Below the pieces are notes generated by a model that worked only from the letters and a program-made list of their open reading frames with translations, was not told the DNA's origin and searched no databases. The position numbers and the translations under genes were made by a program. This document shows positions 2,435 through 58,221 of a DNA stretch of 64,000 nt, one piece after another. The DNA is from a virus. Location of the stretch: positions 34,617 through 98,616 of IMG/VR virus record IMGVR_UViG_3300036981_000255; one strand, written 5' to 3'. Position 1 is the stretch's first letter; each line of letters opens with the position of its first letter.

Positions 2435-2644
2435 TTAATCTTGTGGTTGTAAACTATGCTTTGTAACTTTTTCAACGTTTAATCTAAAACCGATTCTTCC
2501 GTCAACAATGATTCCAAGCATAGTGTCATCATTTTCTGGATTCATCATCATTGGTGTTGCTTTGAATCTATCTGTACTGTTGATAAAATTTTGCAACATT
2601 GTTGTAAACTCTGTTTGAAGTTTGTTAAATTCTGTAATATTCAT
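2435..2644 (-). CDS. Small duplicated protein, copy A (69 aa)
   Basis: Nearly identical to the product of 2899-3108: both share the segments INSTDRFKATPMMMNPE and VDGRIGFRLNVEKVTKHSLQ. The two genes flank a 79-residue gene, so one copy arose by local duplication. The protein has no membrane segment or known motif. The stop lies 5 bases from the start of the next gene. Function unknown. Confidence 0.7.
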   Translation of the reverse strand: MNITEFNKLQTEFTTMLQNFINSTDRFKATPMMMNPENDDTMLGIIVDGRIGFRLNVEKVTKHSLQPQD

Positions 2645-2898: not shown

Positions 2899-3108
2899 TT
2901 AATTTTGTGGTTGTAAACTATGTTTTGTAACTTTTTCAACGTTCAATCTAAAGCCAATTCTTCCGTCAACGATGATTCCTAACATTGTATCATTAGTTTC
3001 TGGATTCATCATCATTGGTGTGGCTTTAAATCTATCTGTACTATTGATAAATTCTTGCAACATTGTTGTGAACTCGTTTTGGAGTTGGTTAAATTCTGTA
3101 ACATTCAT
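2899..3108 (-). CDS. Small duplicated protein, copy B (69 aa)
   Basis: Paralogue of the gene at 2435-2644, differing at only a few residues (for example PETND against PENDD). DNA identity is high across the whole coding region, which indicates a recent tandem duplication or gene conversion. Its start has the same AAATCTTATG context. Function unknown. Confidence 0.7.
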   Translation of the reverse strand: MNVTEFNQLQNEFTTMLQEFINSTDRFKATPMMMNPETNDTMLGIIVDGRIGFRLNVEKVTKHSLQPQN

Positions 3109-4874: not shown

Positions 4875-4999
4875 GACTTGGGGATGTCTTTAGACTAGAT
4901 AAAAAAACTGATGAAAGGTTAATAAAGTATTGTCATCGTTAATCAGTAACCATACAATATCGTTGAAAATCATATAAAAGTTCCATAAAAAAAACTTTA

Positions 5000-5048
5000 T
5001 CGCAACCGAGTTTACGAAGGTTTATCATAAACGAATTTATGAGGTTTA
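5000..5048. repeat. Tandem degenerate palindromes, array 2 (inverted copy)
   Basis: Read on the minus strand this is CCTCATAAATTCGTTTATGA followed by AAACCTTCGTAAACTCGGTT. The first unit matches the array at 3156-3195 almost base for base, in opposite orientation, including the flanking GGAATTAAA. It lies just upstream of the TnpB gene. Confidence 0.6.
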
Positions 5049-5056
5049 ATTCCAAC

Positions 5057-5064
5057 TATTTATA
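5057..5064 (+). promoter_or_regulatory. TATTTATA motif upstream of tnpB
   Basis: TATTTATAGTTATA lies 32 bases before the tnpB TTG start on the coding strand. It matches the motif found before structural genes. It may be a promoter for tnpB, but an AT-rich chance match is possible. Confidence 0.3.
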
Positions 5065-5096
5065 GTTATATTATAACAAAAACAAAACACTATCAA

Positions 5097-6359
5097 TTGC
5101 TAAGAACATCCCGACATAGTATCAGTAACACAGCAAATCAAGGCAAACTCAATGTTTTGGGGCAATTCGTTAATGATTACAAACATGATGTTCAATTGTT
5201 TGTTAATAAGATTGTCAAAGGTGAATTTCCGTTACAAACACTATATTCTCCAAAGGGTGTTGAAGGTGCAATCTTAAAACACAGTAAATACAAACGTGAC
5301 ATTTACACAAAAGCAAGTCAAATAGTTAGAGGAGAAATAGCAGCAGCCGAGGAACGCAGATACCAAGCCTACAAGAAATTGTACAAGAAACTTATTAAGC
5401 TAAATATTCATACTGCATTCACTAATAAACGATATAGCGAACTGAACCTCAAACACATTTTCAAAACCGATTTTTTCACTATTCCAGAAATCAAAAATAT
5501 CACTATTGATTTGGCAAAAGATTTGGCTGACATTCAAGACGGCAAACACTTTGACAATTTTGTAAGAATCAAACTTCCATATTTCAATGAAAAAGGCACA
5601 CGAGCCTTACAAATCAAGTTACCAGTCAAAAATTACAAACATTCAAACAATTTTATCACTAAAGGTTACACAAGAAAAACGTCAATCCAACTAAAGAAAG
5701 TCAATAACAAATTCTTCATAAACTTCTTGTGGGAAAAAAACGAAATCAAAAAATCAAAACTATCTTTCAAACCCAAAGTAAAAGCCAAATCAAAAACAGA
5801 CGAACGCCCTAAACAAAGCGACATAATTCTATCCAAAACAGATAACTCAATGGGCATTGACTTAGGCTACAAAAAACTAATTGTAACGTCTAAAGGTCAA
5901 ATCTTAGGAACTGATATGATAAACATTTACAAGAAATTGGTGGCTTGTAAAAGTGGAACAGCAAAATATAAACGTTTAAAAAGAGAACGAGATAACAAAA
6001 TAAACTTCTATGTCAATCAAATTGACTTTGATGGTGTTGAAGTTTTGAAAATCGAAGACCTCAAAGACGTAAAAAAAGATTCAAAAGGTAAAAAATCAAA
6101 AAAGATAAATTCACTTCTCTCAAAATGGATTTATCCAAAAATTATAAGTAAAATAACGATGACATGTGAGGACAAAGGTATTTTGTTGGTAAAGGTTTTA
6201 CCAGCATATACATCACAAACATGTTCATCTTGTGGTGAAATACATAGAAAGAGCCGTAAAGGTGAACTTTACAAATGTGTTTCGTGTGGTTTTGAATTGG
6301 ATGCAGACTTAAATGCAGCAATCAATATCAATAACAGAGGGAGCTTGCAGTCCCCTTAA
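5097..6359 (+). CDS. tnpB: TnpB, RNA-guided nuclease of the IS200/IS605 type
   Basis: The 420-residue product has the split RuvC nuclease of TnpB: SMGIDLGYKK (Asp near residue 256), VLKIEDLKD (Glu near 320) and LDADLNAAINI (Asp near 404). A four-Cys zinc finger (SQTCSSCGE ... YKCVSCGFE) lies before the last motif. All catalytic residues are present, so it is predicted active. TnpB enzymes cut DNA beside a short TAM using an omega RNA made from the 3' end of their own gene. The frame is open from 5043; TTG at 5097 gives the family-like start LLRTSRHSI. The spacing between RuvC-I and RuvC-II is short. No TnpA is present, so movement would need a partner. It is on the opposite strand to the surrounding tail genes. 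Confidence 0.88.
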   Translation: MLRTSRHSISNTANQGKLNVLGQFVNDYKHDVQLFVNKIVKGEFPLQTLYSPKGVEGAILKHSKYKRDIYTKASQIVRGEIAAAEERRYQAYKKLYKKLIKLNIHTAFTNKRYSELNLKHIFKTDFFTIPEIKNITIDLAKDLADIQDGKHFDNFVRIKLPYFNEKGTRALQIKLPVKNYKHSNNFITKGYTRKTSIQLKKVNNKFFINFLWEKNEIKKSKLSFKPKVKAKSKTDERPKQSDIILSKTDNSMGIDLGYKKLIVTSKGQILGTDMINIYKKLVACKSGTAKYKRLKRERDNKINFYVNQIDFDGVEVLKIEDLKDVKKDSKGKKSKKINSLLSKWIYPKIISKITMTCEDKGILLVKVLPAYTSQTCSSCGEIHRKSRKGELYKCVSCGFELDADLNAAININNRGSLQSP

Positions 6360-6360
6360 C
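6290..6360 (+). ncRNA. Possible omega (guide) RNA scaffold end of tnpB
   Basis: The end of tnpB carries a small hairpin GGGA-gcttgcag-TCCC at 339-354 of this kilobase, followed by CTTAAC at the stop. In IS605 elements the omega RNA overlaps the tnpB 3' end and the guide begins at the element's right end. Here a guide would begin near 6361 (CAAAAAACTGGATTTG). The boundary is inferred. Confidence 0.3.
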
Positions 6361-6413
6361 CAAAAAACTGGATTTGTGTGAAAATGTGAAATCTTTAGGA
6401 TTCTATGTTTTTA

Positions 6414-6505
6414 TATGGATTTGGTAACTCTTAGGCAGTATTGCAGTTGGATTGAAAATGAAATTTCTCTAACTTTAACATCAGTGTAGTCAAAAGTTCC
6501 CATCT
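6414..6505 (-). pseudogene. Fragment of a tail-tube gene (C-terminal end)
   Basis: The minus strand encodes MGTFDYTDVKVREISFSIQ followed by LQYCLRVTKSI and a stop. This matches the end of the intact tube protein at 6872-7363 (EFSYGDAKVREISFTIQ, then QRCLRLY). Only about the last 28 codons remain, preceded in frame by a stop. It is a relic of a second tube copy, stranded between the intact tnpB and the broken one. Confidence 0.75.
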
Positions 6506-6522
6506 ACCTTAAAAAAAGAAGA

Positions 6523-6871
6523 AGGGCGTTTCATTGTAATTTATACAGAACAAGACTTATCAAGCAAATTATTAAAACAAAATATTGTCAAATTGTCTGG
6601 AACAGACATAACAAACAAAACACGTCATAAAACAAGTGAGAATCGTTCCAAAGAAACAAGGTTACATCGTTTTTGAAGTGGTCTATGAAGTCAAAGAAAT
6701 TCCAAAAAAGAAAGACAATAAACGTTACCTTTCAATAGACTTAGGCATCAACAATCTATCAACGTTATCAAAGCACAAATCATCAACGGTAAACCACTAA
6801 AATCAATAAACCAAATTTCCAATAAACAAGTATCAAAACTGAAATCAATTATCACAACGATAAATAAAAAA
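6523..6871 (+). pseudogene. Degenerate second TnpB (frameshifted, truncated)
   Basis: Three plus-strand frames in succession give parts of an IS605 TnpB: EEGRFIVIYTEQDLSSKLL, then VRIVPKKQGYIVFEVVYEV and KRYLSIDLGINNLSTL (the RuvC-I Asp), then QIINGKPLKSINQISNKQ. At least two frameshifts separate them, and RuvC-II, zinc finger and RuvC-III are missing. It is unlike the intact TnpB upstream, so it came from a different element. It ends at the stop codon of the tail-tube gene. The whole gap 6360-6871 therefore contains the tube fragment and this relic. Confidence 0.8.
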
Positions 6872-7363
6872 CTAGTAAAGTCTTAGGCAACGTTGTGGTT
6901 GTATAGTAAATGAAATTTCACGGACTTTTGCATCACCATAACTAAATTCACCAAAATCTAATTCACCTGTTACAATGGCATTTTCAATCAACCATTTAGA
7001 TACTGCTACACCAGTTGGGTCTAATAGTTCAAGTTCAAGATTTTTTGCGCATCCTATATTGTATCCCATACGACCTGTGGCAGATTCAGCGTGAAGACGT
7101 ACCCACTCCATCAATGCTTCACCTTGAGAGGGTGCAACAAAATCTCTAACTTTTATTGCCATTTCTTTCCACTCATACGAGCCATTCACGTATGTTTTAG
7201 TATTTAAAAAAGCAATATCAATTTTTTGCAAGGACATTTTCGGTGAACCGCAAGATATTAATGACCATGTTTGAATACCAACATCTGATGGAAAACGTAA
7301 AATCCAACGATTTGTTAGCATAATTTCATATTGCAAAGGACTTTTTAATAGTAAATCCGCCAT
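6872..7363 (-). CDS. 19: Tail tube protein (gp19-like)
   Basis: The 163-residue product has the length of T4 gp19 and shares its pattern: a start region with NRWILRFPSDVG, a central VRDFVAPSQGEALMEWV, a strand with ELELLDPTGVAVSKWLI and the C-terminal FSYGDAKVREISFTIQP. It would polymerise to form the inner tail tube. A paralogue lies at 27415-27936, and a C-terminal relic at 6414-6505. It sits downstream of the sheath gene as in other contractile phages. Confidence 0.82.
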   Translation of the reverse strand: MADLLLKSPLQYEIMLTNRWILRFPSDVGIQTWSLISCGSPKMSLQKIDIAFLNTKTYVNGSYEWKEMAIKVRDFVAPSQGEALMEWVRLHAESATGRMGYNIGCAKNLELELLDPTGVAVSKWLIENAIVTGELDFGEFSYGDAKVREISFTIQPQRCLRLY

Positions 7364-7494
7364 GATAATCAGTAAGTTATATATTTTATTTGTTCTTTGT
7401 TGTTGCTCAATTTTGGCAACCTCTTTTTTATTCCAAAGATAAACTTTATGAATCTTTATATTAAATATCAGTCAAATGATTTTTTTTATAATCA

Positions 7495-7680
7495 TCAGAC
7501 AGGATTACAAACAACCGCACAAGTGAATGTCAATGCTTGAACATTTGGGCATTGTTGTGCTTGTTTTGCAGTAATCTGTGTATTCGTCATTATATCAAAA
7601 TAAACCACAGACGTTGTAACAGTTCCATCTGGATTCATCATATTGATTGTCATTTTTCTAATGTTATCGCAATTAATCAT
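7495..7680 (-). CDS. Unknown small protein, 61 aa
   Basis: Small Cys-containing protein starting MINCDNIRKMTINMMNPDG, with DIMTNTQITAKQAQQCPNV in the middle. It begins 7 bases after the preceding gene ends, with a TATCTTATG start context. It lies between the 507-residue protein and the tube gene, so a minor virion role is possible. The 130-base gap after it (7364-7494) shows no clear feature. Confidence 0.55.
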   Translation of the reverse strand: MINCDNIRKMTINMMNPDGTVTTSVVYFDIMTNTQITAKQAQQCPNVQALTFTCAVVCNPV

Positions 7681-7687
7681 AAGATAT

Positions 7688-9211
7688 TTATTTTCTTTTT
7701 CTTTTTCTTTTGTTCTTGTTTGCTTTGAGCGCTTCTTGCTCTCTCAACTTTTTCATCGTTAATTTGATGAAAATTTCAACATTACCTTTTACGTGGTTTA
7801 CAACTGATTCATCTGTGAAAATTTTCTCTAACACATTGGACATTGATTTGAATGCTTCGTCTTTAAGATAAAGTCCTCGTGAGTTCTTGACAACATATTT
7901 TAAAATCGGTAAAGTCACAATTTCAGCAACTCTTGAAACACTTCTTCCATCAATAATGTTTTCAATATCTTGGTAATCCATACCAAAAACAGCCGTTTTG
8001 ACTTCACGTTTGATTTCAGTTCGTAAATTTGGAAGATTGTCAAGAATACCATCCAATATTTTCCACTTATTCCGTTCAATTGAACCCTTCAAATGCCTAC
8101 CTTTAAACTCGTCATATTTATCACTAAAATACCCTTCAGACATTTGATTATTCATCAGTTTTTTCACACCTAAAACATCACCAACATCAAGCAACGTTAT
8201 CAACATCTTATGAATATTTTGTTTATCAATAGTGTTCAATTTTTCCATTGAATCAACAAACATTTTACTGATTTGATTACCGATATTAGAATCTAAATTT
8301 AAACTATCAAAAAACTTGTCCAAGTTTTCTTCACCATCATCAATAATTTTTACCAACTCTTTAATTTCAGGCGCAATAAAATCTTTGGCAGTTACTTCAT
8401 TCAATAGTTTATCATAAATATCATAAGATTCATTTTTATTCGCTTGACTTTGCAAAAAACTGATGATTTCACGATATTTAGGGACAAATGATTTTTTAAC
8501 CCAATTGGAATATGTTTCTTTGTATTGTTTGAACTGTCCAATAGACTTTTCATCATTCATTTGACTTTCAACATTGTCGAAAACATTTAAAATGTTGTCA
8601 TTTGATTTTCTACTAACTCCACTTGATTGTGGTTGGGCAGTTTTTGCATTTGGCAACACACTAGAAATCAAATCTTGGTATTCTTTTGAATTTGAAAGGT
8701 CTTGTAATTTACCTTTTAAAACTTTCTCAAGATTTGTCTGCAACATCTCACGAACTTTACCATTTCTCACAACTTCTCCAAGGGCTTCAAACACATGTCT
8801 ATCGAGTTCACTATTACCAGTGGATACTTTGGACATTAATGGTGTATATTGACGGATTTTACCGCCTATGGATGCTTCACCGAATGTCTTATCAACAAAG
8901 TAAGAAAGCATTGGAATCCCTATAAGTCTAAAGACGTTTTGATAGTCCGTAGAGTTTGGATTTTTTTGATAATCAGTCAACGTTTTTAAAATATCAACGT
9001 TTGATTTCCCTGCTTCAATTAACTTTTTGTACAAATATTTTGCAAATTCGCCTTCAAATGTTTGTGAAAGAATAGATGCAATTTTTTTGTTATTGATACT
9101 TTGTTCTGACGAGCCGAAATTACGAATCTTGTTCAATACAGATTTGGGGTCAATTTCATTCAATTGACCCCTCTGTTCAAGTTTTATTTGTTCAAGTATG
9201 TAATCTCGCAC
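7688..9211 (-). CDS. Unknown 507-aa protein of the tail cluster
   Basis: Almost wholly helical, charged protein. It starts at a GTG (an in-frame stop lies just upstream) and ends in a highly basic tail KANKNKRKRKRK. It has no signal peptide or catalytic motif. It sits between sheath and tube genes, 13 bases downstream of the sheath stop, so it is probably a structural or assembly protein made late. The basic tail could bind DNA or a negatively charged virion surface; this is speculation. Confidence 0.65.
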   Translation of the reverse strand: MRDYILEQIKLEQRGQLNEIDPKSVLNKIRNFGSSEQSINNKKIASILSQTFEGEFAKYLYKKLIEAGKSNVDILKTLTDYQKNPNSTDYQNVFRLIGIPMLSYFVDKTFGEASIGGKIRQYTPLMSKVSTGNSELDRHVFEALGEVVRNGKVREMLQTNLEKVLKGKLQDLSNSKEYQDLISSVLPNAKTAQPQSSGVSRKSNDNILNVFDNVESQMNDEKSIGQFKQYKETYSNWVKKSFVPKYREIISFLQSQANKNESYDIYDKLLNEVTAKDFIAPEIKELVKIIDDGEENLDKFFDSLNLDSNIGNQISKMFVDSMEKLNTIDKQNIHKMLITLLDVGDVLGVKKLMNNQMSEGYFSDKYDEFKGRHLKGSIERNKWKILDGILDNLPNLRTEIKREVKTAVFGMDYQDIENIIDGRSVSRVAEIVTLPILKYVVKNSRGLYLKDEAFKSMSNVLEKIFTDESVVNHVKGNVEIFIKLTMKKLREQEALKANKNKRKRKRK

Positions 9212-9224
9212 TTTTCGTTATTTG

Positions 9225-12200
9225 TTAAATATTTGTAAAATCAACCCCTACTGGTGAAAGCACAAATTCAATGTTGATGTACTCTAAAGTTCTAATAGGT
9301 TGAATCGCAATTTTACAATTCATGGCATTACTATTGAAACTATCGGCTGAACGGTCAATTTGAATTTGATAATCAAAAATACCACGTTCATCACGGATGT
9401 TCGCCAAAATCGGATTCACAAGATTTTCAAATTGTCTTCTGACTTCTTCATCGTTTTGTTCAAACAATAATGTTAAAGACACATCTTCAATTAAACGTCT
9501 CATGTACAAGATTAAACGTCTAACGTTGATACGGTCAAGAGCAGATTCTGCAATTTGTAGATTTTTATTACCCCAAATATACACTGGGCTAGTTCCGTTT
9601 GCTTGTTTGAGTGTGATAAGTGAATTGATACGTCCTTCAAATAAAGCATCACGCTCATCGAATGTCAATTTCTTTCTCGCTTGTCTAAATTCAGTTTCAC
9701 CTATTTTTGTACCAGCAGCAGCGCCCCAAGGTTTTCTCAATTTATCATTCAAAGCAAAAATACGCATCGCTTCAGCAGTGGGTGGCAACCACAAATAAAC
9801 ATTGTTCACTTCATCAAACATTTGACCCCAAGGAAAATACGTTGCTGTATAACTTGAGTCAAACAAACCATCAATTACACCAGCAGCATCTTTTGCTTTT
9901 AAAGTTTGTCCACCTGAATCTTGGTCAAGAGTAGTTGTAACGTAGAATGTATCACAACGCTCGTTTTCAACCATATCAATAGTTTCTTCGATAAGGTCAG
10001 TGTTTTCAGTTGTGTTCAAATTAGGTGTTGCCAACAAGTTCATACGAATTTCATCTCTATTCGCTAGAACTCTGATACCTTCCAAATATGCGTAAAAGTC
10101 AGAATTGATAACAGTTTGACCGTTATTGATATTTTCAGAAGAATATACACCAAAATTTCCACTGACTAAACCTTTTTGTCCAAGGCTTCCTTTTACAGAA
10201 TATTGGTCTGTGTTTGTACGTCTTTTTCTATGAATATCCCAACCGTCAAAGCCACCATAAACCATCATTGTGAATTTTCTTGCGAAAACTTGTTCGTAAT
10301 CAGTACCAACCATGTCAGATTCGTTTTGGAACGCAAATTCACCTCTGTCAAACTCTACAGCTCCAAAGCCTTCAACTGTTACCCCTGTGGCATTAACGTC
10401 CATGTGGAATCCATGTGTTGAACCTGTCCAAAATGGCAAATCTGGGTCAGATGGAACACCTTTATAAGTGAAAAAGTCAGCGTCAAAACCTAATGTGTCT
10501 GTAAATCCAAGGTAAACTTGACGTATTCTGTCAAAATCTTCGTACTTAGTTTTATAAACAATTTGCGGAGCTAAAGCACACTCGTAATCACGAACAGGAT
10601 AGCCTTCAAAACCTGCTGGGAATGATTCATCTTGACATTGAACACCCATTTCAATCATAATGTGCTTACTTTGCAACACATGGTCTCCATCGACTGTACC
10701 AATACGTCTTGCGATATAGTTGGTATCATTGGCTCTCAACGTAACGTTTGTGAAACTTTCCAAAACCACAGGACGTTTATCTGTATCACCATAAGAACGA
10801 ACTTGAACATCAAAAGATTTTTTGTCAGGTCTTATGTTTGTAATAGACACTTTAACATCAGTGTTTGCAGCATCACCATCAGAAAATGTATGGAAACGGA
10901 ACAAACGGAACACTCTGTTACCACGAAGCTCGGATACAACCCAAGGTGTCATAGCAGGTTGATATGGCTCTTTGTAATCGTCCAAATCTTGTGTATAACA
11001 AACAGTCGGCTTGATACAATAAATCAAACCATTTTCGTACAAATAATTGAATGTTGTACCAAAAAATTCCTCCAAATATAACTGTGTTGCAGGTGGGCAA
11101 CAAGGAATAAATTGTGTAAATACACGTAGAATGAAATTCTTTTTGGTTTTGTCCAATGATACGTTGTATTCAAAAGCAACACCATTTCTGTTTGTTCCTT
11201 TGATTAAGAAATCGTCCAATGGTTTTATAATGCCACCATCCAATGATTCAATAGTGACAACATTTCCTTCAACCGCAAAATTTAGAATTTCATCTCCGTC
11301 ATAAGTTGCAAATGAACGAATCAAAGCAACAATAGTGTTATCGTATTGAGCATAAGGTGTTCCTGACAATTCAATAACAGTTCCACTAAACTCGTGTGTC
11401 ACTAAACCCGATGGAATTTGGGAAACCACTTGTTGTGTTGTGCCAGAAACCACCGAAGTTGTGATGATAGTTGTACCAGTTGTGATAGTGAAATTGACAC
11501 CTTGAATGGTTTCACAGTCATAAACTGCTGCGTTTCCTGCCAAGTCGCAAATTTTATATTCACCGCCACTGAAAACGTCACCGTTAGGGAAGAAAATCGA
11601 ACCATTTTCAATCACTATAGAACCGTCAACATTATGTGTAATTGTTCCACCGACTAAAGTTACAATTCCAGATTCTACAATGGTAAGTTCATTTGTATCA
11701 ACGTTTTGAACAACCATTGGGTTAGTAACTGTAATAACAAATGTACTATCAGTAGTAACTGTACCACCACTATAAAGCACAAGACAATTTTGAACTTCAC
11801 TTGGGACATCAATTGTAACACCAACAGCAGTTTCACCTGTGATACAAATATAAGTTTCTTCTGATGTCAGCAATTGCATGGTAAATCTTGCGCCTGTGAA
11901 GGTTGAACAATCGCCCATCAATGTATTCCCCAAAGAAACTGATTGACCAGTCGCCAAATCTGCTCCACCGAAAACAGTAGTTGCAATTTCACCTGCATCA
12001 TACAAATCTTGCAAAACGGTGTTGCTGAAAGTTACGTTAGAAACTGCGCCATTTGCATACTTGATAGTAGCAGTGAAAGCAGAAGTTGAAGTTGTTGTGA
12101 TAGTTGCAGGGTCAAGTGATGCGCCAAAAGAAATACCCCAAGAATCACCAGCATCATATCCTGTGAATCCTAAAATTCTACTGACGAATAGTTGGTCTGA

Positions 12201-17747: not shown

Positions 17748-18284
17748 ATGAAAAACCGTAAAATATATCTAAGTGAATCACAAATCAAAGGCTTAAAATC
17801 AATAGGATTGCAAGAAATAATTGATGCAGATGGCTCTCTAATAAGTGGCGATGAAATTTCTAACGAAAAAACCATTAAAACCAACACTATAAAACCCGAT
17901 GGACGACCACAAACATCTGATGATTTTGCTAAAGAAACAGGTAAGCAATCTGACATGTATTTGAATCGTTATGGTTTTTCAATTACAGAAGGTGAAGATG
18001 CGTTGACAGAAGCAGACGACTTTGTATCTAATAATGCAAAACCGAGTGGATTCATGGATAAAAATTCAAAAATCCCTGAAACTACTGAATTATCAAAAAG
18101 TTATAAAAAACCCGATATTCAAAGCTCTTTGAATGATTTGATACGCAAAATAACTCAAAATTCAATTGAAAAGGAATTGCAACAAGATATTAACGCAATT
18201 GTATTGAAAGGGTTGCTATCATCTGTTAATTTTAGTAATATGAAACCACAACACAAAAAAGAAATCCAAAATATGTTAAAATAA
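17748..18284 (+). CDS. Tagged head/internal protein, 178 aa
   Basis: The N-terminus MKNRKIYLSESQIKGLKSIG followed by LQE carries the tag shared by many proteins here ([K]-I-x-L-[NST]-E-x-Q-x). T4 packages internal proteins into the head by N-terminal capsid-targeting sequences cut after L/I-x-E by the prohead protease; GLQE, SITE and ALTE here would be such sites. The rest is hydrophilic and low in structure, ending in helices. Its stop overlaps the next ATG (TAATG), so the two are coupled. I infer a head-core or injected protein; no enzyme motif is present. Confidence 0.65.
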   Translation: MKNRKIYLSESQIKGLKSIGLQEIIDADGSLISGDEISNEKTIKTNTIKPDGRPQTSDDFAKETGKQSDMYLNRYGFSITEGEDALTEADDFVSNNAKPSGFMDKNSKIPETTELSKSYKKPDIQSSLNDLIRKITQNSIEKELQQDINAIVLKGLLSSVNFSNMKPQHKKEIQNMLK

Positions 18285-19291
18285 TGGCAAATAGCGATTT
18301 GGTTGGAAAAATGTGGAAAATTCCAAGTCCATATTTATCAAAATTAAGAGAAAAATTGAACAATCATCAAGGTGATAAACACGTTGAAGGGTACACTCGA
18401 CTTCAAAATCTTTTGCAAAGTGGTAAAATATCTTACGAGAATTTGAAGAATGTGAAACACATTCTGGACAAGAATATAAAAAATGAAACTATCTACGAAT
18501 TAAATGGCGGTAAAGATTTTCACCGATGGATTAACGACCAACTATCAGTTGCAAGAAATAGTATTGAAAGCGGAAAGAAAATTCAGAAAGATGTTGGAAA
18601 TCAGAACGCATACAAGAAACCTCACGAAAAAGATTCAACAAACAAAGGGAAAGTTCGTACAGCAAGACTCGACAAATCTACAAGTTCAAAAGACATTTAT
18701 AACAATAATGTGAACTATGAATCTGTTCAAAGGTCATCTATTAAAATTGTAATATCTGAAAGTCAATATCGTCAACTTTTCCAAGAATCAAATGATATTC
18801 CAATTAGCCCATCAGTTATTAACGAAATATTGAAAGGTTATATTCAAGCTGCGCTATGGCTTGAAAAGGAAAGATTGGAGGAAGATTTTAATTCTATCAT
18901 GGGTTATGACGATGAAGATGACTATGACTATGAAGAATCCGAAGAGACTAATGAACTTCAAAAGTTGATTAAAATGTCAGCAGATATCAATAAAAAATCT
19001 TTTGATAGTTTTATGGCACAGGATATGGATTCAAATTCAAAAATTCAAGCCTATTTGGACATTAAAGATTTTATAAAATCTGCTGGAATGGATGCAATCA
19101 ACGAAGTTTTAGAAACAGACGGAGCAAATGACTTAGGAATGGATATTTGGCTCACAAGAAATCGTCATGGTGCAGGTTTTTTTGACCGAACTTACGACCA
19201 TGAATCGGAATTAATGGATGCAGCTCATAAATTAGGCGAAGTTGACCTATATATTGGGGACGATTTGTTATTATATTTTAGCAATATTTAG
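18284..19291 (+). CDS. Head-type protein fused to an internally tagged cargo, 335 aa
   Basis: Residues 1-150 look like a conserved phage head-associated domain (LQNLLQSGKISYENLKNVKH, YELNGGKDFHRWINDQL). At about residues 151-168 comes IKIVISESQYRQLFQE, the tag that elsewhere is N-terminal. Cutting there would free a C-terminal cargo. The cargo has an acidic stretch (DDEDDYDYEESEE) and ends with WLTRNRHGAGFFDRTYD and LYIGDDLLLYFS, a pattern I know from many uncharacterised phage proteins. An internal tag suggests a polyprotein processed in the prohead. Tag similarity is seen; processing is inferred. Confidence 0.65.
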   Translation: MANSDLVGKMWKIPSPYLSKLREKLNNHQGDKHVEGYTRLQNLLQSGKISYENLKNVKHILDKNIKNETIYELNGGKDFHRWINDQLSVARNSIESGKKIQKDVGNQNAYKKPHEKDSTNKGKVRTARLDKSTSSKDIYNNNVNYESVQRSSIKIVISESQYRQLFQESNDIPISPSVINEILKGYIQAALWLEKERLEEDFNSIMGYDDEDDYDYEESEETNELQKLIKMSADINKKSFDSFMAQDMDSNSKIQAYLDIKDFIKSAGMDAINEVLETDGANDLGMDIWLTRNRHGAGFFDRTYDHESELMDAAHKLGEVDLYIGDDLLLYFSNI

Positions 19292-19294
19292 AAA

Positions 19295-19897
19295 ATGAAA
19301 ATAATATTAACCGAAAATCAATATAATTCACTATTCAACGAAATCTATTTTTCCACTTTCAGTGAAAACCAACAAACGCCAGTAAACTGTGATTGCTGTC
19401 AATATTTTGATTTTGAATCTTTGATGCAATATGGTGGCTTCGAGCATCCCATTTATTATCTTATCAATAAACGTGAGACTAATGACCTTCAATTCATGTC
19501 TCCTGATGATTATATAAAATCCATTGCCAAAGCATCAAACCTTTCGACTTCTGAAATAGTAAATTCAAATGTTGTTTTTCAACAAAAAATAGATAAATAT
19601 GCCGAGTTGATGCGAAACGGCACTAAGTTCCCTATCGGTTTTTATACAATTGGTAAATCTTATCAAGAAGGTCGTCATCGAACCTTGGCAGCAAAACAAA
19701 TTGGTTGTTTATCAATACCTATGGTAAGGATTGTAAAAAATATTTCAACAAAAGATGTTGAGAAAGTCGTAAGAGGTTTGATTGGAAAGTCAAGAGAAGT
19801 GGTCAATCAAATGTATGTCGATAAGGGCTTTAAAGGGATTACAGATTTGGATTGGCGAGAATTAAACAATTATCAAAAATATTACTTAAATCAATAA
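19295..19897 (+). CDS. Tagged ParB/Srx-like protein, 200 aa
   Basis: The N-terminus MKIILTENQYNSLFNE is the shared tag. Near residues 125-145 lies SYQEGRHRTLAAKQIGCLSI, the signature of the ParB/sulfiredoxin fold (G-R-H-R) seen in phage ParB-like nucleases or CTP-binding proteins. The gene follows the previous one after 3 bases. I infer a capsid-packaged, DNA- or nucleotide-acting protein injected with the genome. The catalytic activity cannot be told from sequence alone. Confidence 0.68.
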   Translation: MKIILTENQYNSLFNEIYFSTFSENQQTPVNCDCCQYFDFESLMQYGGFEHPIYYLINKRETNDLQFMSPDDYIKSIAKASNLSTSEIVNSNVVFQQKIDKYAELMRNGTKFPIGFYTIGKSYQEGRHRTLAAKQIGCLSIPMVRIVKNISTKDVEKVVRGLIGKSREVVNQMYVDKGFKGITDLDWRELNNYQKYYLNQ

Positions 19898-19899
19898 AA

Positions 19900-20373
19900 A
19901 TGAAAATATTTCTGAACGAAAGTCAATATAAAGTGTTATTTGAAAATTCTGCAACTAAAACAAAACTCAAAGGTTTAAAACCTATGGGAGTTTATATGAA
20001 AGCAGCATTTGATTCTGGGTATGATGAAGAATCAATGGCAAAAATGCAAATCAATAGATTTTTGAGCCGTCTAACAAATTTGCCAGAAGTTGTAACGTTA
20101 TATCGAGTTGTTTTTGTTGATGATGAATCAAAGATTGACCATGTAAACATTGGTGAACATTATGGTGTCAATGAGCGAAACCTTTTAGCAAGCCATTACA
20201 GACAATCACACGTTGGAGGTGGAAAACCATTCTTGTTAACAGTCAAAGCAGATAGAAATCTTGTGAATTTCCATGAAACTCTTTTGAATAATATCATCTA
20301 TCCACATGAAAACGAGATTACTTTGAAGAACAATGGACGTGGTGCAAATATTGTGAAAATTAAACCGTTGTAA
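19900..20373 (+). CDS. Tagged ADP-ribosyltransferase-like protein, 157 aa
   Basis: The start MKIFLNESQYKVLFE, at an ATG 2 bases after the previous stop, is the tag; the longer upstream reading (from 19852) would bury the tag and is rejected. Downstream are VVTLYRVVFVDD (an Arg as in ART motif 1) and YPHENEITLKN, an E-x-E pair as in arginine-type ADP-ribosyltransferases. The Ser-Thr-Ser motif is not clear. T4 Alt is a packaged and injected ADP-ribosyltransferase with a cleaved N-terminus, which makes the combination meaningful. ART assignment is probable, not proven. Confidence 0.62.
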   Translation: MKIFLNESQYKVLFENSATKTKLKGLKPMGVYMKAAFDSGYDEESMAKMQINRFLSRLTNLPEVVTLYRVVFVDDESKIDHVNIGEHYGVNERNLLASHYRQSHVGGGKPFLLTVKADRNLVNFHETLLNNIIYPHENEITLKNNGRGANIVKIKPL

Positions 20374-27414: not shown

Positions 27415-27936
27415 TTATTTAATTGGAATAAAATAGTCTTTTTGAAACGGGATTTCAGTTGAATTTTGAATAGTTGGAATAACAACCACATTACTTGGTG
27501 AAATTGTAATGAAAGGTTCTAGTATTTCGTCTGCGCCATAATTGAAAAGACCAAAATTTATCTTTTTTATTTTGCTACTTTCAACCAAAAACTTTTGAAC
27601 CACCACGCCAGTTGGGTCACATAAATCAATTTCAATAACAAACGATTGGTCACCATATTGTTGAACAAATTTATCTAAAATTGTGATTGTTGGTGGAGCA
27701 ATAAATGCTCTAAAGTGAATTGTAATATCAGCCCAGTTATTATCGTTATATTCAATTGGTGATAATTTAGAAACCGACCATGGAGGTAAATCAACATCTG
27801 CTGGAAATCTCACAATAAATCTATTGGCTTGCATTGGTTCGTAAAGATGAAATAAACCTGCGCTGTGCTTTTCCTTATAACTTTTACTAAAAAAACCTTT
27901 GATTTTCTGGAATATCTTTTGTACCATTGTTTGCAT
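27415..27936 (-). CDS. Second tail-tube-like protein, 173 aa
   Basis: Shares NRFIVRFPADVDLPPWSVSK and then IDLCDPTGVVVQKFLVESSK with the tube at 6872-7363 (NRWILRFPSDVG, ELLDPTGVAVSKWLI). It may cap the tube, terminate it, or build its baseplate end, as gp54-like tube paralogues do in T4. Two ATGs are near the start: 27936 and 27927. The promoter-like motif ends only 4 bases before 27936, so transcripts would begin too late, and 27927 (MVQKIFQKIKGFF) is the likelier start. Confidence 0.72.
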   Translation of the reverse strand: MQTMVQKIFQKIKGFFSKSYKEKHSAGLFHLYEPMQANRFIVRFPADVDLPPWSVSKLSPIEYNDNNWADITIHFRAFIAPPTITILDKFVQQYGDQSFVIEIDLCDPTGVVVQKFLVESSKIKKINFGLFNYGADEILEPFITISPSNVVVIPTIQNSTEIPFQKDYFIPIK

Positions 27937-37626: not shown

Positions 37627-38046
37627 TTAATTGGAAATAGGTTCATTAAAAATAATGTTCCAACCATCTAAATTTTCCCAATCACCATTTAAAGTTAAAA
37701 CCTGTAAATCTTTCGATAATACAGGTTCAAATGAGATATATTCCACCCCTTTATTATTCCGTATTCTTGGAGATAGTGTAAAATTATTATTTTTTTTAAT
37801 TCTTAAAATAACGCTATTGTGTACTCCACCTTTAGAATTTGCGTAATATTTAGCATAATCTAAACTGTTTGTAAAAGAAATAGATGGCATTTTTTCACCA
37901 GTATTATTGGTTTTCATATATCCATCACGTTGAATACCTAATGTTGCGCCCTTGCTTGTTCCATGATAAAGATATACATCTTCAGACTCTTCAATAAACA
38001 TCTTTTGATATTGTTGTTCAGACAATAGGATTTTTTTCTTTTTCAT
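37627..38046 (-). CDS. Tagged ADP-ribosyltransferase-like protein, 139 aa
   Basis: MKKKKILLSEQQYQKMFIEE is the shared tag. After it comes VYLYHGTSKGATLGIQRDGY (the His of an H-x-E type ART/Tpt1 fold), MPSISFTNSLDYAKYYANS and GVEYISFEPVLSKDLQVL with the last Glu. Size and order fit a small ART domain. It lies between two glycosyltransferase genes, suggesting it was dropped into that cluster. I infer capsid packaging and injection. Confidence 0.62.
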   Translation of the reverse strand: MKKKKILLSEQQYQKMFIEESEDVYLYHGTSKGATLGIQRDGYMKTNNTGEKMPSISFTNSLDYAKYYANSKGGVHNSVILRIKKNNNFTLSPRIRNNKGVEYISFEPVLSKDLQVLTLNGDWENLDGWNIIFNEPISN

Positions 38047-46193: not shown

Positions 46194-46308
46194 TTGTACT
46201 TATAGTTAAAATTTTTTCTTGTAATATAATGTTTGTTTTTTATTTTTAAAGGCTTTGACTTATATTGGTCGAAGTAAACTTATTACTTGACAAAAATTGA
46301 AAAAAAAA

Positions 46309-46899
46309 ATGAAAATAACTGAAAGTAGATTAATTCAATGTGGTTTTGAATTTGTTTCGCAAAAGCTCAATTTTGACTTATTAGAGAAGCTTGAAAATAA
46401 GATTCCGCATAGTCGGTACTACCACTTTGTGTTGAATGGCTATTATCAAATAGAATGTGAAAAATATGAAAAAGAGTTTGATGCAGTCATCACTGAAGTG
46501 GTCAAAATCTACAAAATCAAAGGGCGTTTCGGCAAACATCAATGGATTTTATGTTATAATTCTTATGAGTTTTATGAAATTTGTACTTTAGAAGAATTGT
46601 TATCAATCTGCAACAACATTTACCACAACAAACAATTGGGCTTTGTGTATGTGATAAAATCCGACTTCGGTTATAAGATTGGGCAATCAAATAATTTGAC
46701 CAACCGAAACAGACAATTTGAAGTTAAATTACCTTTCGATTGGTCTTTTTATAAGATATACACGCTTGAAAAATTCAAGGAAATGGAAAAAATGTCTCAC
46801 GAATTGATGGCAGACAAGCGAATTAATGGTGAATGGTTCAATCTTGACGACAAAGATTTTGTTTTATTTGACTTGTTGTACAAACAACTAATCTTATAA
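46309..46899 (+). CDS. GIY-YIG / T5orf172-like protein, 196 aa
   Basis: Residues 105-170 read LGFVYVIKSDFGYKIGQSNN, then FEVKLPFDWSFYKIYTLEKF and MADKRINGEWFNLDDKDF. This is the T5orf172/MUG113 pattern, a GIY-YIG nuclease relative. The start at 46309 is chosen over TTG at 46297. It is a lone plus-strand gene between minus-strand genes, the usual situation of a mobile nuclease. Its stop overlaps the convergent gene by 6 bases. Cutting activity is not certain. Confidence 0.7.
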   Translation: MKITESRLIQCGFEFVSQKLNFDLLEKLENKIPHSRYYHFVLNGYYQIECEKYEKEFDAVITEVVKIYKIKGRFGKHQWILCYNSYEFYEICTLEELLSICNNIYHNKQLGFVYVIKSDFGYKIGQSNNLTNRNRQFEVKLPFDWSFYKIYTLEKFKEMEKMSHELMADKRINGEWFNLDDKDFVLFDLLYKQLIL

Positions 46900-51521: not shown

Positions 51522-52304
51522 TTATTTGATTTGTGTAATGTTTTTATTTATATTTATTTCATATATTTTACTAATCTTGTTTAAGGGGATTGACTTAGCT
51601 GTTTTAGCATAACCATCGTTTTTATCAACCCAAAATCCATCGCCATCTACAACTTTCACTTCAATTATGTAATTTGGTTTATTTTCAGTTGGTTTATGTT
51701 TATCTGTTGCGAAAGAAGTTGCATAAGATATTGCAGAATTCGGTGTTTTACTATAAACTGTTAAGCCTTGTTCAACTTCATAACCAATATTCATTTCTTG
51801 ATTTGATTTGATGAATCTGTTAGATTCAATAAATTTCATTTCGGCTGAATTAACACCTCTCCATACAGTGTGTAATAATTCTGGAACTTCATAAAATATG
51901 TAATGTTTGAACCTGTTAGTATTAAATTCCGACTCGTCTGAATATAAAAAGGGATATATGGATTCAGGATATAACTCTTCAATTGTTTCATCTAAATTAC
52001 TCCCGACTACTTTTGAACGAACAATGTTTTTGTCAATATTTCCAACTTCTTCTTGAACGTGTTTTATTTCATTTGACTGAACAATCAATTGGATTTTTTT
52101 GCGAATTTCCTTCTTCTTTTCAATCAGATTTTTTGCTTCATCGGAATTTAGATTTGGACTATCTTGTTCAGTTCTGTTTTTTAATAGATAATCCTTCATC
52201 AATTGATTGACATTTTTAAGTTCTAAATTTAATTTGTCTAACTCAAGATTTTCGTTCTCAAACAGTAAATAGTATTGACCTTCATTCAAGATTATTTTTT
52301 TCAT
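51522..52304 (-). CDS. Tagged ADP-ribosyltransferase-like protein, 260 aa
   Basis: MKKIILNEGQYYLLFE at the start is a near-ideal tag. A helical region follows. The last 120 residues read LLHTVWRGVNSAEMKFIESN, TVYSKTPNSAISYATSFA and NYIIEVKVVDGDGFWVDK, the R-G / S-x-x-x-A / E order of phage ART-like domains. It is in tandem with a second tagged ART-like gene. Injection into the host, as with T4 Alt, is inferred. Confidence 0.58.
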   Translation of the reverse strand: MKKIILNEGQYYLLFENENLELDKLNLELKNVNQLMKDYLLKNRTEQDSPNLNSDEAKNLIEKKKEIRKKIQLIVQSNEIKHVQEEVGNIDKNIVRSKVVGSNLDETIEELYPESIYPFLYSDESEFNTNRFKHYIFYEVPELLHTVWRGVNSAEMKFIESNRFIKSNQEMNIGYEVEQGLTVYSKTPNSAISYATSFATDKHKPTENKPNYIIEVKVVDGDGFWVDKNDGYAKTAKSIPLNKISKIYEININKNITQIK

Positions 52305-52330
52305 TTATCTTAGCAATCCAATTGCTTTAT

Positions 52331-52879
52331 TTAAATTTTTTTATTTGGGTTAATTCTAAATACTGAATTAGGTTGATTATGCCCTTCATCCACCCAAATA
52401 GCGTTTAAGCCTAAATTTTCAGCTATTTTAATTGCCATATCGAAATTCACATCTTCTCTGCCATACCCTCTTGGAAGTGGTTCGTGTCTATATATTTTAT
52501 CAGTATCCACTTTAATTTTAGTCAATTCACTTTCCATTCCAGTTCTTGTAAATTCTAAAGCAAACTCTTTTGAAGGGGAATAAAAATTATTACCTTCATT
52601 GTAACCATGTCCACGATATAAGGTTATTATATTTTCAATATTTTTATCTTCATACTGATAAAATATCCAATCTAAGATAGGAACTGTTGTATATTTAACC
52701 GTCACTCCATCGACTTTAATTGATTTAACATTAGACATTTCTTTAATGTTATCAGTTTTTTTAAAGATATGATTTTGAAACTCTTTCTTCTTTTTTAAAG
52801 TTGAAATAATTTTTTCATCCATATCCGATGCCTGTTCAAATAAATTATCAAATTGTTGTTCGTTGATTAATATTCGCAT
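52331..52879 (-). CDS. Tagged ADP-ribosyltransferase-like protein, 182 aa
   Basis: MRILINEQQFDNLFEQASDM bears the tag (L-F-E site). Then IITLYRGHGYNEGNNFYSPS (Arg motif and a Y-S-P-S Ser motif), followed by EFALEFTRTG, PLPRGYGREDVNFD and NAIWVDEGHNQPNSVFRIN. The order R ... S-x-S ... E suits a small ADP-ribosyltransferase. It starts where the upstream gene stops (shared base), so coupling is likely. Confidence 0.58.
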   Translation of the reverse strand: MRILINEQQFDNLFEQASDMDEKIISTLKKKKEFQNHIFKKTDNIKEMSNVKSIKVDGVTVKYTTVPILDWIFYQYEDKNIENIITLYRGHGYNEGNNFYSPSKEFALEFTRTGMESELTKIKVDTDKIYRHEPLPRGYGREDVNFDMAIKIAENLGLNAIWVDEGHNQPNSVFRINPNKKI

Positions 52880-56784: not shown

Positions 56785-57405
56785 ATGAAAAGAAGAATAT
56801 TAATTAACGAAAATCAATACAATTTTTTATTTGAATCTGATGATTTTGAATTAAAAATCAATACACTTATTAATAGTGGACAATTAGAAAATATAGAACT
56901 TGCGTTTCAACTTATTGAGGGGATGAATTTAGATAAAGAAAAATTCTTTAGCCATTTTCAAGAAACTTTCGATTTTCTTAAACATCATGATAAGATTTCT
57001 GCAAATCCTCTGGATGAAATGACACCTCAAAGTCTTTATGAAATTTTAAATTTAGAAAATTTAGGGTTTCTACAAGACAAATTAATTGAAGGCGTACCTG
57101 AATTATGGTTGCCAAATTTATTCACTCTATACATCGAATTATCCGACCCAAAAACATTACCAAAATTTAGTCATACACCCAAATTAAATACACTTATATT
57201 AAGCAATAACGAACTGGACACAATACCTTTTTGGGATATTCAATCCTTGAAATTTTTATCCGTAGCTAACAATAATTTGTCCGATGTTTCAGTGTTTAAA
57301 AAATTAACAAATTTAACTGAATTAGATGTGTCAAAAAACTATTTTAAACATTCTCAAGCAATAGAGTTACAACAAATGTTACCCAATACTATAATCAGAT
57401 TCTAA
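56785..57405 (+). CDS. Tagged leucine-rich-repeat protein, 206 aa
   Basis: MKRRILINENQYNFLFESDD is the tag. A region like the Bacteroidota LRR opening (LINSGQLENIELAFQLIEGM) follows. Repeats are short: LNTLILSNNELDTIPFWD, LKFLSVANNNLSDVSVFK and LTELDVSKN. A protein-binding effector, packed in the head and injected, is a likely reading. It is 6 bases after the neck gene. Confidence 0.68.
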   Translation: MKRRILINENQYNFLFESDDFELKINTLINSGQLENIELAFQLIEGMNLDKEKFFSHFQETFDFLKHHDKISANPLDEMTPQSLYEILNLENLGFLQDKLIEGVPELWLPNLFTLYIELSDPKTLPKFSHTPKLNTLILSNNELDTIPFWDIQSLKFLSVANNNLSDVSVFKKLTNLTELDVSKNYFKHSQAIELQQMLPNTIIRF

Positions 57406-58221
57406 ATGAAAAAACAAATTATATTAAACGAAAATCAATATAGAGTTTTATTTGAATCTGATGATTTTTCACTTCAATTAAAGAACTTGAAAAAATTACT
57501 TGAATCAGGTCAAGAAGAAAATATTGAACTTGCATTTCAACTTGGTGAAGGAATGGAATCTTATGTGCCAAATTTTAATATGGGCAGATATATATTGAGT
57601 AATTATGGAACTCTTATTAAAATGATTTTAGGTTATATGCCAAAAGGTAATGTAGGAACTTGGCACAATGAAGAAATTTACACTTACGTTGTAAAATCTT
57701 TTATTATGTTATTTAGCTCAAAAGAATTAAAATTGTTTAGAAAAGGTTTAACAAAATTTCCAGACGATATATCAAAATTACAACATATTGAATTATTAGA
57801 TTTAAGTGACAATCAATTGACATTCTTGCCAGAATCAATTGGATTATTAAAAAATTTAAGTCGTTTAAATTTAAGTGATAATAAAATATCTGAACTACCA
57901 AGCTCAATGAAAAATATGAGCAATTTGAGAGCAATTTCTTTATCCAATAATGAAATGTACCAGTTACCAAAAAATCTATTGGAATTTACACAGTTGGAAT
58001 TTTTGGATATATCATATAATAATTTTTTACACCTACCACAAGATATTGACAAATTGGCTAATTTAGAAATACTTTTTGCCAATGATAATAAACTGTCAAC
58101 AATTCCACACTCTTTATCTAATATCAAATCTTGGACACTTCTAGATTTTAAGTATAATCACATACTACCATCCGAACAACGTGAATTGCAACAATTATTT
58201 AAAGTTAAAATTGATTTTTAA
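57406..58221 (+). CDS. Tagged leucine-rich-repeat protein, 271 aa
   Basis: MKKQIILNENQYRVLFESDD is the tag, and the first 50 residues resemble those of the gene directly upstream, so the pair is a tandem duplication followed by divergence. Repeats at about residues 120-255: IELLDLSDNQLTFLPESIG, LSRLNLSDNKISELPSSM, LRAISLSNNEMYQLPKNL. The two genes abut without a gap. Same role as the neighbour is inferred. Confidence 0.7.
   Translation: MKKQIILNENQYRVLFESDDFSLQLKNLKKLLESGQEENIELAFQLGEGMESYVPNFNMGRYILSNYGTLIKMILGYMPKGNVGTWHNEEIYTYVVKSFIMLFSSKELKLFRKGLTKFPDDISKLQHIELLDLSDNQLTFLPESIGLLKNLSRLNLSDNKISELPSSMKNMSNLRAISLSNNEMYQLPKNLLEFTQLEFLDISYNNFLHLPQDIDKLANLEILFANDNKLSTIPHSLSNIKSWTLLDFKYNHILPSEQRELQQLFKVKIDF

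What the first reader, a model, noticed from the sequence alone, without database searches (positions are those of the whole stretch)
5097..7363. Active-looking TnpB beside a dead TnpB and a relic of the tail-tube gene
An intact TnpB is followed by a C-terminal fragment of a tube gene, then a broken TnpB of another family, then the intact tube gene whose stop codon meets the relic. The duplicated gene end around the foreign DNA recalls how homing endonucleases bring a replacement gene end with them. TnpB with an RNA guide could act as an RNA-guided homing or exclusion nuclease against rival phages.
Basis: partly seen in the sequence, partly recalled or inferred. Interest (0 to 1): 0.65.

Follow-up and report, generated by a model that had tools for sequence, protein, structure and literature searches.

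The report
RNA-guided nuclease in phage tail-tube gene
A phage genome carries an intact RNA-guided DNA-cutting gene (TnpB) that landed just before the stop codon of an old tail-tube gene, so its built-in guide reads the end of that gene; it probably works like a homing endonuclease that cuts the same spot in rival phages lacking it.

Summary
TnpB A (5097-6359) is intact and sits in a 1,501-bp element (4929-6429). Its ends could be fixed because a second copy (69% aa, dN/dS 0.15) lies in the same 98.6-kb phage record. Joining A's flanks recreates the 3' end of a tail-tube gene (..QYCLR^LY*), so A inserted inside an old tube gene. The 'relic' is that gene's other flank and would be A's guide (AGT | CTTAGGCAGTATTGCAGTTG). 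The resident tube gene keeps AGT but has 5 mismatches in 20, so it should be spared. TnpB B (6494-6871) is a dead fragment of another TnpB type, ending exactly at the tube stop codon. A belongs to an IS607-type clade found here almost only in phage sequence, mostly without transposase, often in several copies with different guides. All seven mapped elements follow AGT. In a huge phage a sister element interrupts a gene five codons before its stop and carries a 12-bp copy of the gene end that restores it. Best reading: an RNA-guided homing or exclusion element. Not shown: guide RNA, cleavage, or an uninserted relative. Whether B brought the new tube end is open.

The parts
4919..4928 (-). Last 10 nt of the old tube gene (TTAATAAAGT, minus strand reads ..LY stop); its last three bases AGT are the predicted TAM
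   Evidence: Joining 4928 to 6430 restores ..CLRLY stop, as in the intact tube gene (sequence)
4929..6429 (+). Element A, 1,501 bp, no transposase gene
   Evidence: Ends set by comparison with copy 2 at record position 1227-2662 and by the restored reading frames
5097..6359 (+). tnpB A, 420 aa, catalytic residues D255, E320, D404 and zinc finger present
   Evidence: PF07282, alignment, best fold matches Cas12f and TnpB structures, dN/dS 0.15 against copy 2
6337..6429 (+). Predicted 3' part of the guide RNA: short hairpin over the end of the tnpB frame (6337-6357) and long terminal hairpin (6367-6425), ending 4 nt before the element end
   Evidence: Same layout in copy 2, L013, L015; folding z-scores -2.2 to -4.4; covariation term not favourable on the alignment
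6430..6449 (+). Predicted 20-nt guide region CTTAGGCAGTATTGCAGTTG, directly after the right end
   Evidence: Position relative to the conserved right end; no other perfect match in the record
6430..6492 (-). Relic: last 20-22 codons of the old tube gene
   Evidence: Score 73 against max 39 of 1,000 shuffles
6494..6871 (+). TnpB B, internal fragment of an IS605-type TnpB, frameshifted, both ends missing
   Evidence: PF01385, Lak-A1 TnpB 46-59%, tblastn relatives
6872..7363 (-). Intact resident tail tube gene
   Evidence: phrog_4542 E 1.5e-13; homologues
6879..6901 (+). Site in the resident tube gene matching A's target: AGT kept, 5 of 20 guide positions mismatched (9, 10, 11, 15, 16)

Best explanation
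A is a transposase-less, phage-carried IS607-type TnpB element that acts as an RNA-guided homing or exclusion nuclease. Shown by sequence: an intact nuclease gene under purifying selection; two copies at different sites with defined ends; insertion behind AGT inside the 3' end of a tube gene; tube-gene sequence directly after the right end, where TnpB guides begin; and a resident tube gene diverged at that site. Inferred: the right end is transcribed and processed into a guide RNA; TnpB A cuts AGT-CTTAGGCAGTATTGCAG.. in co-infecting phages that still have the uninterrupted old tube allele; repair from the A-bearing genome copies A in, or the rival's tube region is lost. Copies first reached new sites by transposition with an IS607 TnpA supplied in trans or since lost. 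Insertion at a gene end lets the element sit in an essential gene at little cost: A's right end would have given the old tube ..CLR-VTKSI in place of ..CLR-LY. Later the tube gene was replaced or duplicated by a diverged allele joined to the remains of TnpB B.
For: Intact RuvC and zinc finger, Cas12f/TnpB fold matches; dN/dS 0.15 between the two copies and 0.13-0.29 among other phage copies; flanks of A join to a tube gene end and flanks of copy 2 join to an open frame; seven of seven mapped elements follow AGT and end in ACT; six copies of a subgroup share the exact right end and then diverge; predicted guide RNA hairpins; the resident tube gene is the only AGT-adjacent site in the record within six mismatches of the guide, and it carries five; clade found in nine of nine phage records but 0 of 395 and 1 of 198 genomes in two bacterial phyla; sister elements in gene ends. 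The drive mechanism is shown for IS200/605 TnpB on plasmids (PMC11870625).
Against: No guide RNA, cleavage or homing event has been observed. The two copies in one genome show transposition, not homing. No phage with the uninterrupted old tube allele was found. Divergence of the resident tube gene at the target would also arise without any nuclease. Purifying selection fits retention of the transposon as well as homing.
Confidence: 0.5

Rival explanations
1. A is an ordinary transposon passenger: TnpB keeps the element in place after TnpA-driven excision, as proposed for bacterial IS elements, and the phage is only a vehicle. The tube-gene guide is an accident of where it landed.
For: Two sister elements keep a complete IS607 TnpA; the two copies of A in one genome show transposition; copy 2 sits inside a small gene with no obvious benefit.
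Against: A and copy 2 both lack TnpA, yet the nuclease gene stays under purifying selection at dS about 1.45, which excision repair alone would not explain unless TnpA acts in trans.
Confidence: 0.35
2. Hybrid-gene origin of the tube duplication: element B once inserted near the end of the tube gene and brought a new gene end with it, leaving the old end as the relic, as in fungal mitochondrial mobile ORFs. B then decayed, and A sits in the old end.
For: Order new gene end, nuclease remnant, old gene end is the same as in Allomyces atp6 and Glomus genes (PMC3630166); B ends exactly at the resident stop codon; a sister of A in L011 does sit beside a restored gene end.
Against: B is broken at both ends, so its own borders and target are lost; whether the resident tube end is foreign cannot be tested without relatives.
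Confidence: 0.3
3. The relic is what is left of a second, tandem or imported tube copy, and B and A are unconnected later insertions into that dispensable copy.
For: The phage has a further tube-like gene at 27415-27936; relic and resident tube differ by 24% in DNA.
Against: The left flank of A keeps the old stop codon followed by a terminator-like hairpin (sequence), which looks like the natural end of the tube gene at this place.
Confidence: 0.35
4. TnpB A has been turned into an RNA-guided repressor of the tube gene rather than a nuclease.
For: AGT and the first 8 guide nt match the resident tube gene end, so partial binding there is conceivable.
Against: Catalytic residues are kept, unlike the nuclease-dead repressors known as TldR (own knowledge); guides simply follow the flanks, as in mobile elements.
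Confidence: 0.05

Closest known systems
IS607-family TnpB (for example ISFba1 TnpB with its reRNA, TAM AGGAG or GAGGG; PMC11061315)
   Same: TnpB with RuvC and zinc finger; sister elements carry an IS607 TnpA; right-end RNA and guide from the flank; no target duplication in most copies
   Different: A and copy 2 have no TnpA; flank motif AGT; no Rfam RNA family matches the window; NCBIfam IS607_TnpB model far below its cut-off (34 against 350 bits)
TnpB gene drive of IS200/605 elements in plasmids (PMC11870625)
   Same: Proposed action: the guide records the insertion site and cuts uninserted copies
   Different: Phage instead of plasmid, IS607-type instead of IS200/605, transposase missing, not tested experimentally here
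Free-standing phage homing endonucleases (T4 Seg and Mob, PMC2988022) and the intron endonuclease of PhiPA3 used against PhiKZ (PMC11620839)
   Same: Nuclease gene sits at the site it would cut in rival phages; structural or essential genes as targets; expected result is homing or exclusion
   Different: Recognition by guide RNA, which resets itself at every new insertion site, instead of by protein
Mobile ORFs with replacement gene ends in fungal mitochondria (Allomyces atp6, Glomus atp6/atp9/cox2/nad3; PMC3630166)
   Same: Order new gene end, nuclease remnant, old gene end around B; restored gene end next to a TnpB in L011
   Different: B is dead; A is not between the two gene ends; no proof that the resident tube end is foreign

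Membership tests
TnpB RNA-guided nuclease | RuvC D, E, D and zinc-finger cysteines | tested here: met
   D255, E320, D404, CxxC..CxxC; PF07282 above cut-off
TnpB RNA-guided nuclease | General guided_TnpB model NF040570 above its cut-off | tested here: inconclusive
   A 90.4 bits against 100; sisters L013 119 and L016 113 pass
TnpB RNA-guided nuclease | Structured right-end RNA with guide taken from the flank | tested here: inconclusive
   Shared hairpin layout and exact right ends; covariation weak; no RNA data
TnpB RNA-guided nuclease | Conserved motif 5' of the element (TAM) | tested here: met
   AGT in 7 of 7 mapped elements; ends partly chosen by similarity
TnpB RNA-guided nuclease | RNA-guided DNA cleavage | not testable with these tools
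   needs a bench assay
IS607 transposon | Serine-recombinase TnpA in the element | tested here: not met
   absent from A and copy 2; present beside same-clade TnpB in L013 and L219 (NF033518)
IS607 transposon | No target-site duplication | tested here: met
   flanks of A and copy 2 join to open frames without repeats; L011 is an exception with a 12-bp repeat
Homing endonuclease gene | Inserted at its own recognition site | tested here: met
   predicted guide equals the right flank and the predicted TAM is the left flank
Homing endonuclease gene | Uninserted alleles exist in relatives | tested here: inconclusive
   none found; this phage has no near relatives in the collections
Mobile ORF with replacement gene end | Nuclease between a foreign in-frame gene end and the native old end | tested here: inconclusive
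   layout present around B but B is dead and the foreign origin is untested
TldR (nuclease-dead TnpB repressor) | Lost RuvC residues | tested here: not met
   D255, E320, D404 all present

The most novel reading that the evidence does not exclude
Phages host a lineage of mostly transposase-less TnpB elements that spread by RNA-guided homing into the 3' ends of essential genes, some carrying a copy of the displaced gene end that rescues the gene: a natural RNA-guided drive with rescue, with one self-set target per copy and several copies per phage.
Probability: 0.25. Interest if true: 0.85.

Novelty: new variant of a known kind. Interest (0 to 1): 0.55.

Why it matters
Phage TnpB genes are usually noted as stray transposase parts. 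If they act as homing nucleases, rivalry between phages in one cell includes an RNA-guided weapon that resets its target wherever it lands, and the open question of why TnpB persists without a transposase becomes testable with named targets. The gene-end rescue suggested by L011 would be a natural counterpart of engineered rescue drives.

Tried and rejected
Uninserted or closely related tube genes: no match by blastn in INPHARED, by tube peptide patterns, by a 4-sequence tube profile (best of the 80 kept loci 37%) or by a degenerate KVREISF[ST]IQ DNA pattern in IMG/VR. Relatives of the gene broken by copy 2: none. Exact TAM plus 16 nt of the guide in IMG/VR: nine contigs, all one unrelated gene family (..NPPAILPKTD.., another reading frame), 23 of 25 guide nt matching; treated as one chance event and not as the target, though the extended match is better than expected. 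Rfam: no match in the window. Idea that A itself carried the replacement tube end: rejected, A holds no tube sequence beyond its flanks. Idea that all family members sit at gene ends: rejected, copy 2 is inside a small gene, and L014 and L015 show no interrupted gene.

Full report
Setting. The window is the last 64 kb of a 98,616-bp IMG/VR virus record, a myovirus-type phage with tail sheath, tail tube, portal and a family B DNA polymerase. Its tail genes are distantly like those of Flavobacterium phage immuto, Microcystis phage Mel-JY01 and a 484-kb uncultured phage.

What is there. TnpB A is complete and keeps the RuvC residues and zinc finger. A second copy of the same element, 69% identical in protein, lies at 1227-2662 of the record. 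Comparing the two fixes the ends: A spans 4929-6429. Joining A's flanks gives TTAATAAAGT|CTTAGGCAGTATTGC, which on the minus strand reads ..C L R L Y stop, the end of a tube gene (the intact copy also ends CLRLY stop). Joining the flanks of copy 2 restores an open frame ..CDEDHA^DYVYTSYC... So both copies inserted inside genes, behind AGT, without target duplication. The relic is therefore the right flank of A, the remainder of an old tube gene. Its match to the tube is far beyond chance (score 73 against a maximum of 39 in 1,000 shuffles).

Next comes TnpB B, an internal piece of an IS605-type TnpB (46-59% to a Lak-phage TnpB) with reading-frame changes in two places, ending at 6871 directly against the stop codon of the intact tube gene.

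The family. Relatives were found in IMG/VR phage contigs, in the 462-kb uncultured phage LR756500 and in a Nitratidesulfovibrio phage. Records often hold several copies: four in one, two in four others including this one. Six copies of one subgroup end at exactly the same right-end sequence and then diverge. Seven elements with mapped ends follow AGT and end in ACT. Two sisters have a complete IS607 TnpA next to tnpB, so the clade is IS607-type; A and most others lack it. A profile search at E <= 1e-60 found the clade in 0 of 395 genomes of one bacterial phylum and 1 of 198 of another, and a related copy in that one MAG lies on a contig with phage-type DNA polymerase and UvsX genes. The same query scores 1e-120 or better in all nine phage records. 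Selection between A and copy 2 is purifying (dN/dS 0.15 at dS 1.45; a rough Nei-Gojobori estimate at near-saturated silent sites).

Guide RNA. Just before the right end, A, copy 2, L013 and L015 fold into a hairpin ending 4 nt from the end, after a short hairpin over the end of the tnpB frame. This is the layout expected of a TnpB guide RNA, but the covariation term is not favourable and no Rfam family matches. The first 20 nt after the right end are the predicted guide. In the whole record the only AGT-adjacent site within six mismatches is the intact tube gene, with five, three of them at positions 9-11. That is enough to expect protection from cutting (inference from known TnpB guide needs), and it is also what any diverged allele would show.

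Gene ends. Three of the seven mapped elements interrupt a gene within its last seven codons: A (tube..CLR^LY stop), L012 (thyX ..HLAMLNS^LPHEVAL stop, whose old stop overlaps the next start as TAATG) and L011/L019 (..LLKRE^YIASK stop). In L011 the element's left end repeats 12 bp of the displaced end, so the resident gene now ends ..YIASI; homologues without TnpB end a few residues after the same RRE or KRE motif. This repeat may be a rescue copy or an unusual target duplication; one case cannot decide. Copy 2 lies inside a small gene and others show no interrupted gene, so gene ends are not the rule.

How it most likely works. Shown: intact nuclease, defined ends, insertion in the tube gene, guide position, diverged resident target. 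Inferred: RNA made, target cut in rival phages, repair from the A-bearing genome. The mechanism is the one demonstrated for IS200/605 TnpB in plasmids (PMC11870625), moved to phages, where protein-guided homing nucleases already do the same (PMC2988022, PMC11620839). The two copies in one genome prove past transposition, not homing.

The duplicated tube end. It encloses B, not A. Either B once brought a new tube end, as in fungal mitochondrial mobile ORFs (PMC3630166), or a tube copy from another phage or a paralogue was joined there; the phage has another tube-like gene at 27415-27936. Without relatives this stays open.

Literature. Searches for TnpB with phage, homing, jumbo phage and coinfection in the held library found no paper that treats phage TnpB as a homing nuclease. 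The library omits most subscription papers, so this is weak evidence of novelty.

Noticed in passing
L003 6212-9373 (record position 6212-9373), minus strand: Ribonucleotide reductase large subunit interrupted by an intein with a LAGLIDADG domain (PF14528 E 3e-10, PF14890): another homing element in the same phage.
   Followed up: partly
window 46297-46899 +: Protein with T5orf172/MUG113 domains, a GIY-YIG-like fold often found in phage mobile nuclease genes.
   Followed up: partly
L011 2940-4206 (LR756500) and L019: TnpB directly behind a gene whose last 12 bp are repeated on both sides of the element (ACATCGCATCAA), restoring the gene end.
   Followed up: yes
L012 2242-4221 (Nitratidesulfovibrio phage SRB7757): TnpB inserted in thyX seven codons before its apparent old stop; thyX now ends at AGT TGA.
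   Followed up: partly
L104-L112, for example L105 3254-3272 +: AGT plus the first 17 nt of A's guide, and 23 of 25 in all, match one unrelated gene family in nine phage contigs; possibly chance, possibly a second target.
   Followed up: partly
L014 5852-5998, L015 and L016/L017 directly upstream of tnpB: Small DNA-binding-like reading frames (RHH-like or MerR-like by eye) stand where TnpA would be; they may regulate TnpB or be TnpA remnants.
   Followed up: no
window 18284-20373, 37627-38046, 51522-52879, 56785-58221: Many different proteins share an N-terminal motif like MKIILNENQYNxLFE on unrelated bodies, some with leucine-rich repeats; no Pfam match in those tried.
   Followed up: no
window 27415-27936 minus: Second tube-like protein (phrog_4542 E 1.5e-4), 39% to the main tube protein over the matched part.
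   Followed up: partly
window 2435-2644 and 2899-3108 minus: Two nearly identical 69-aa proteins separated by one small gene, a recent duplication.
   Followed up: no
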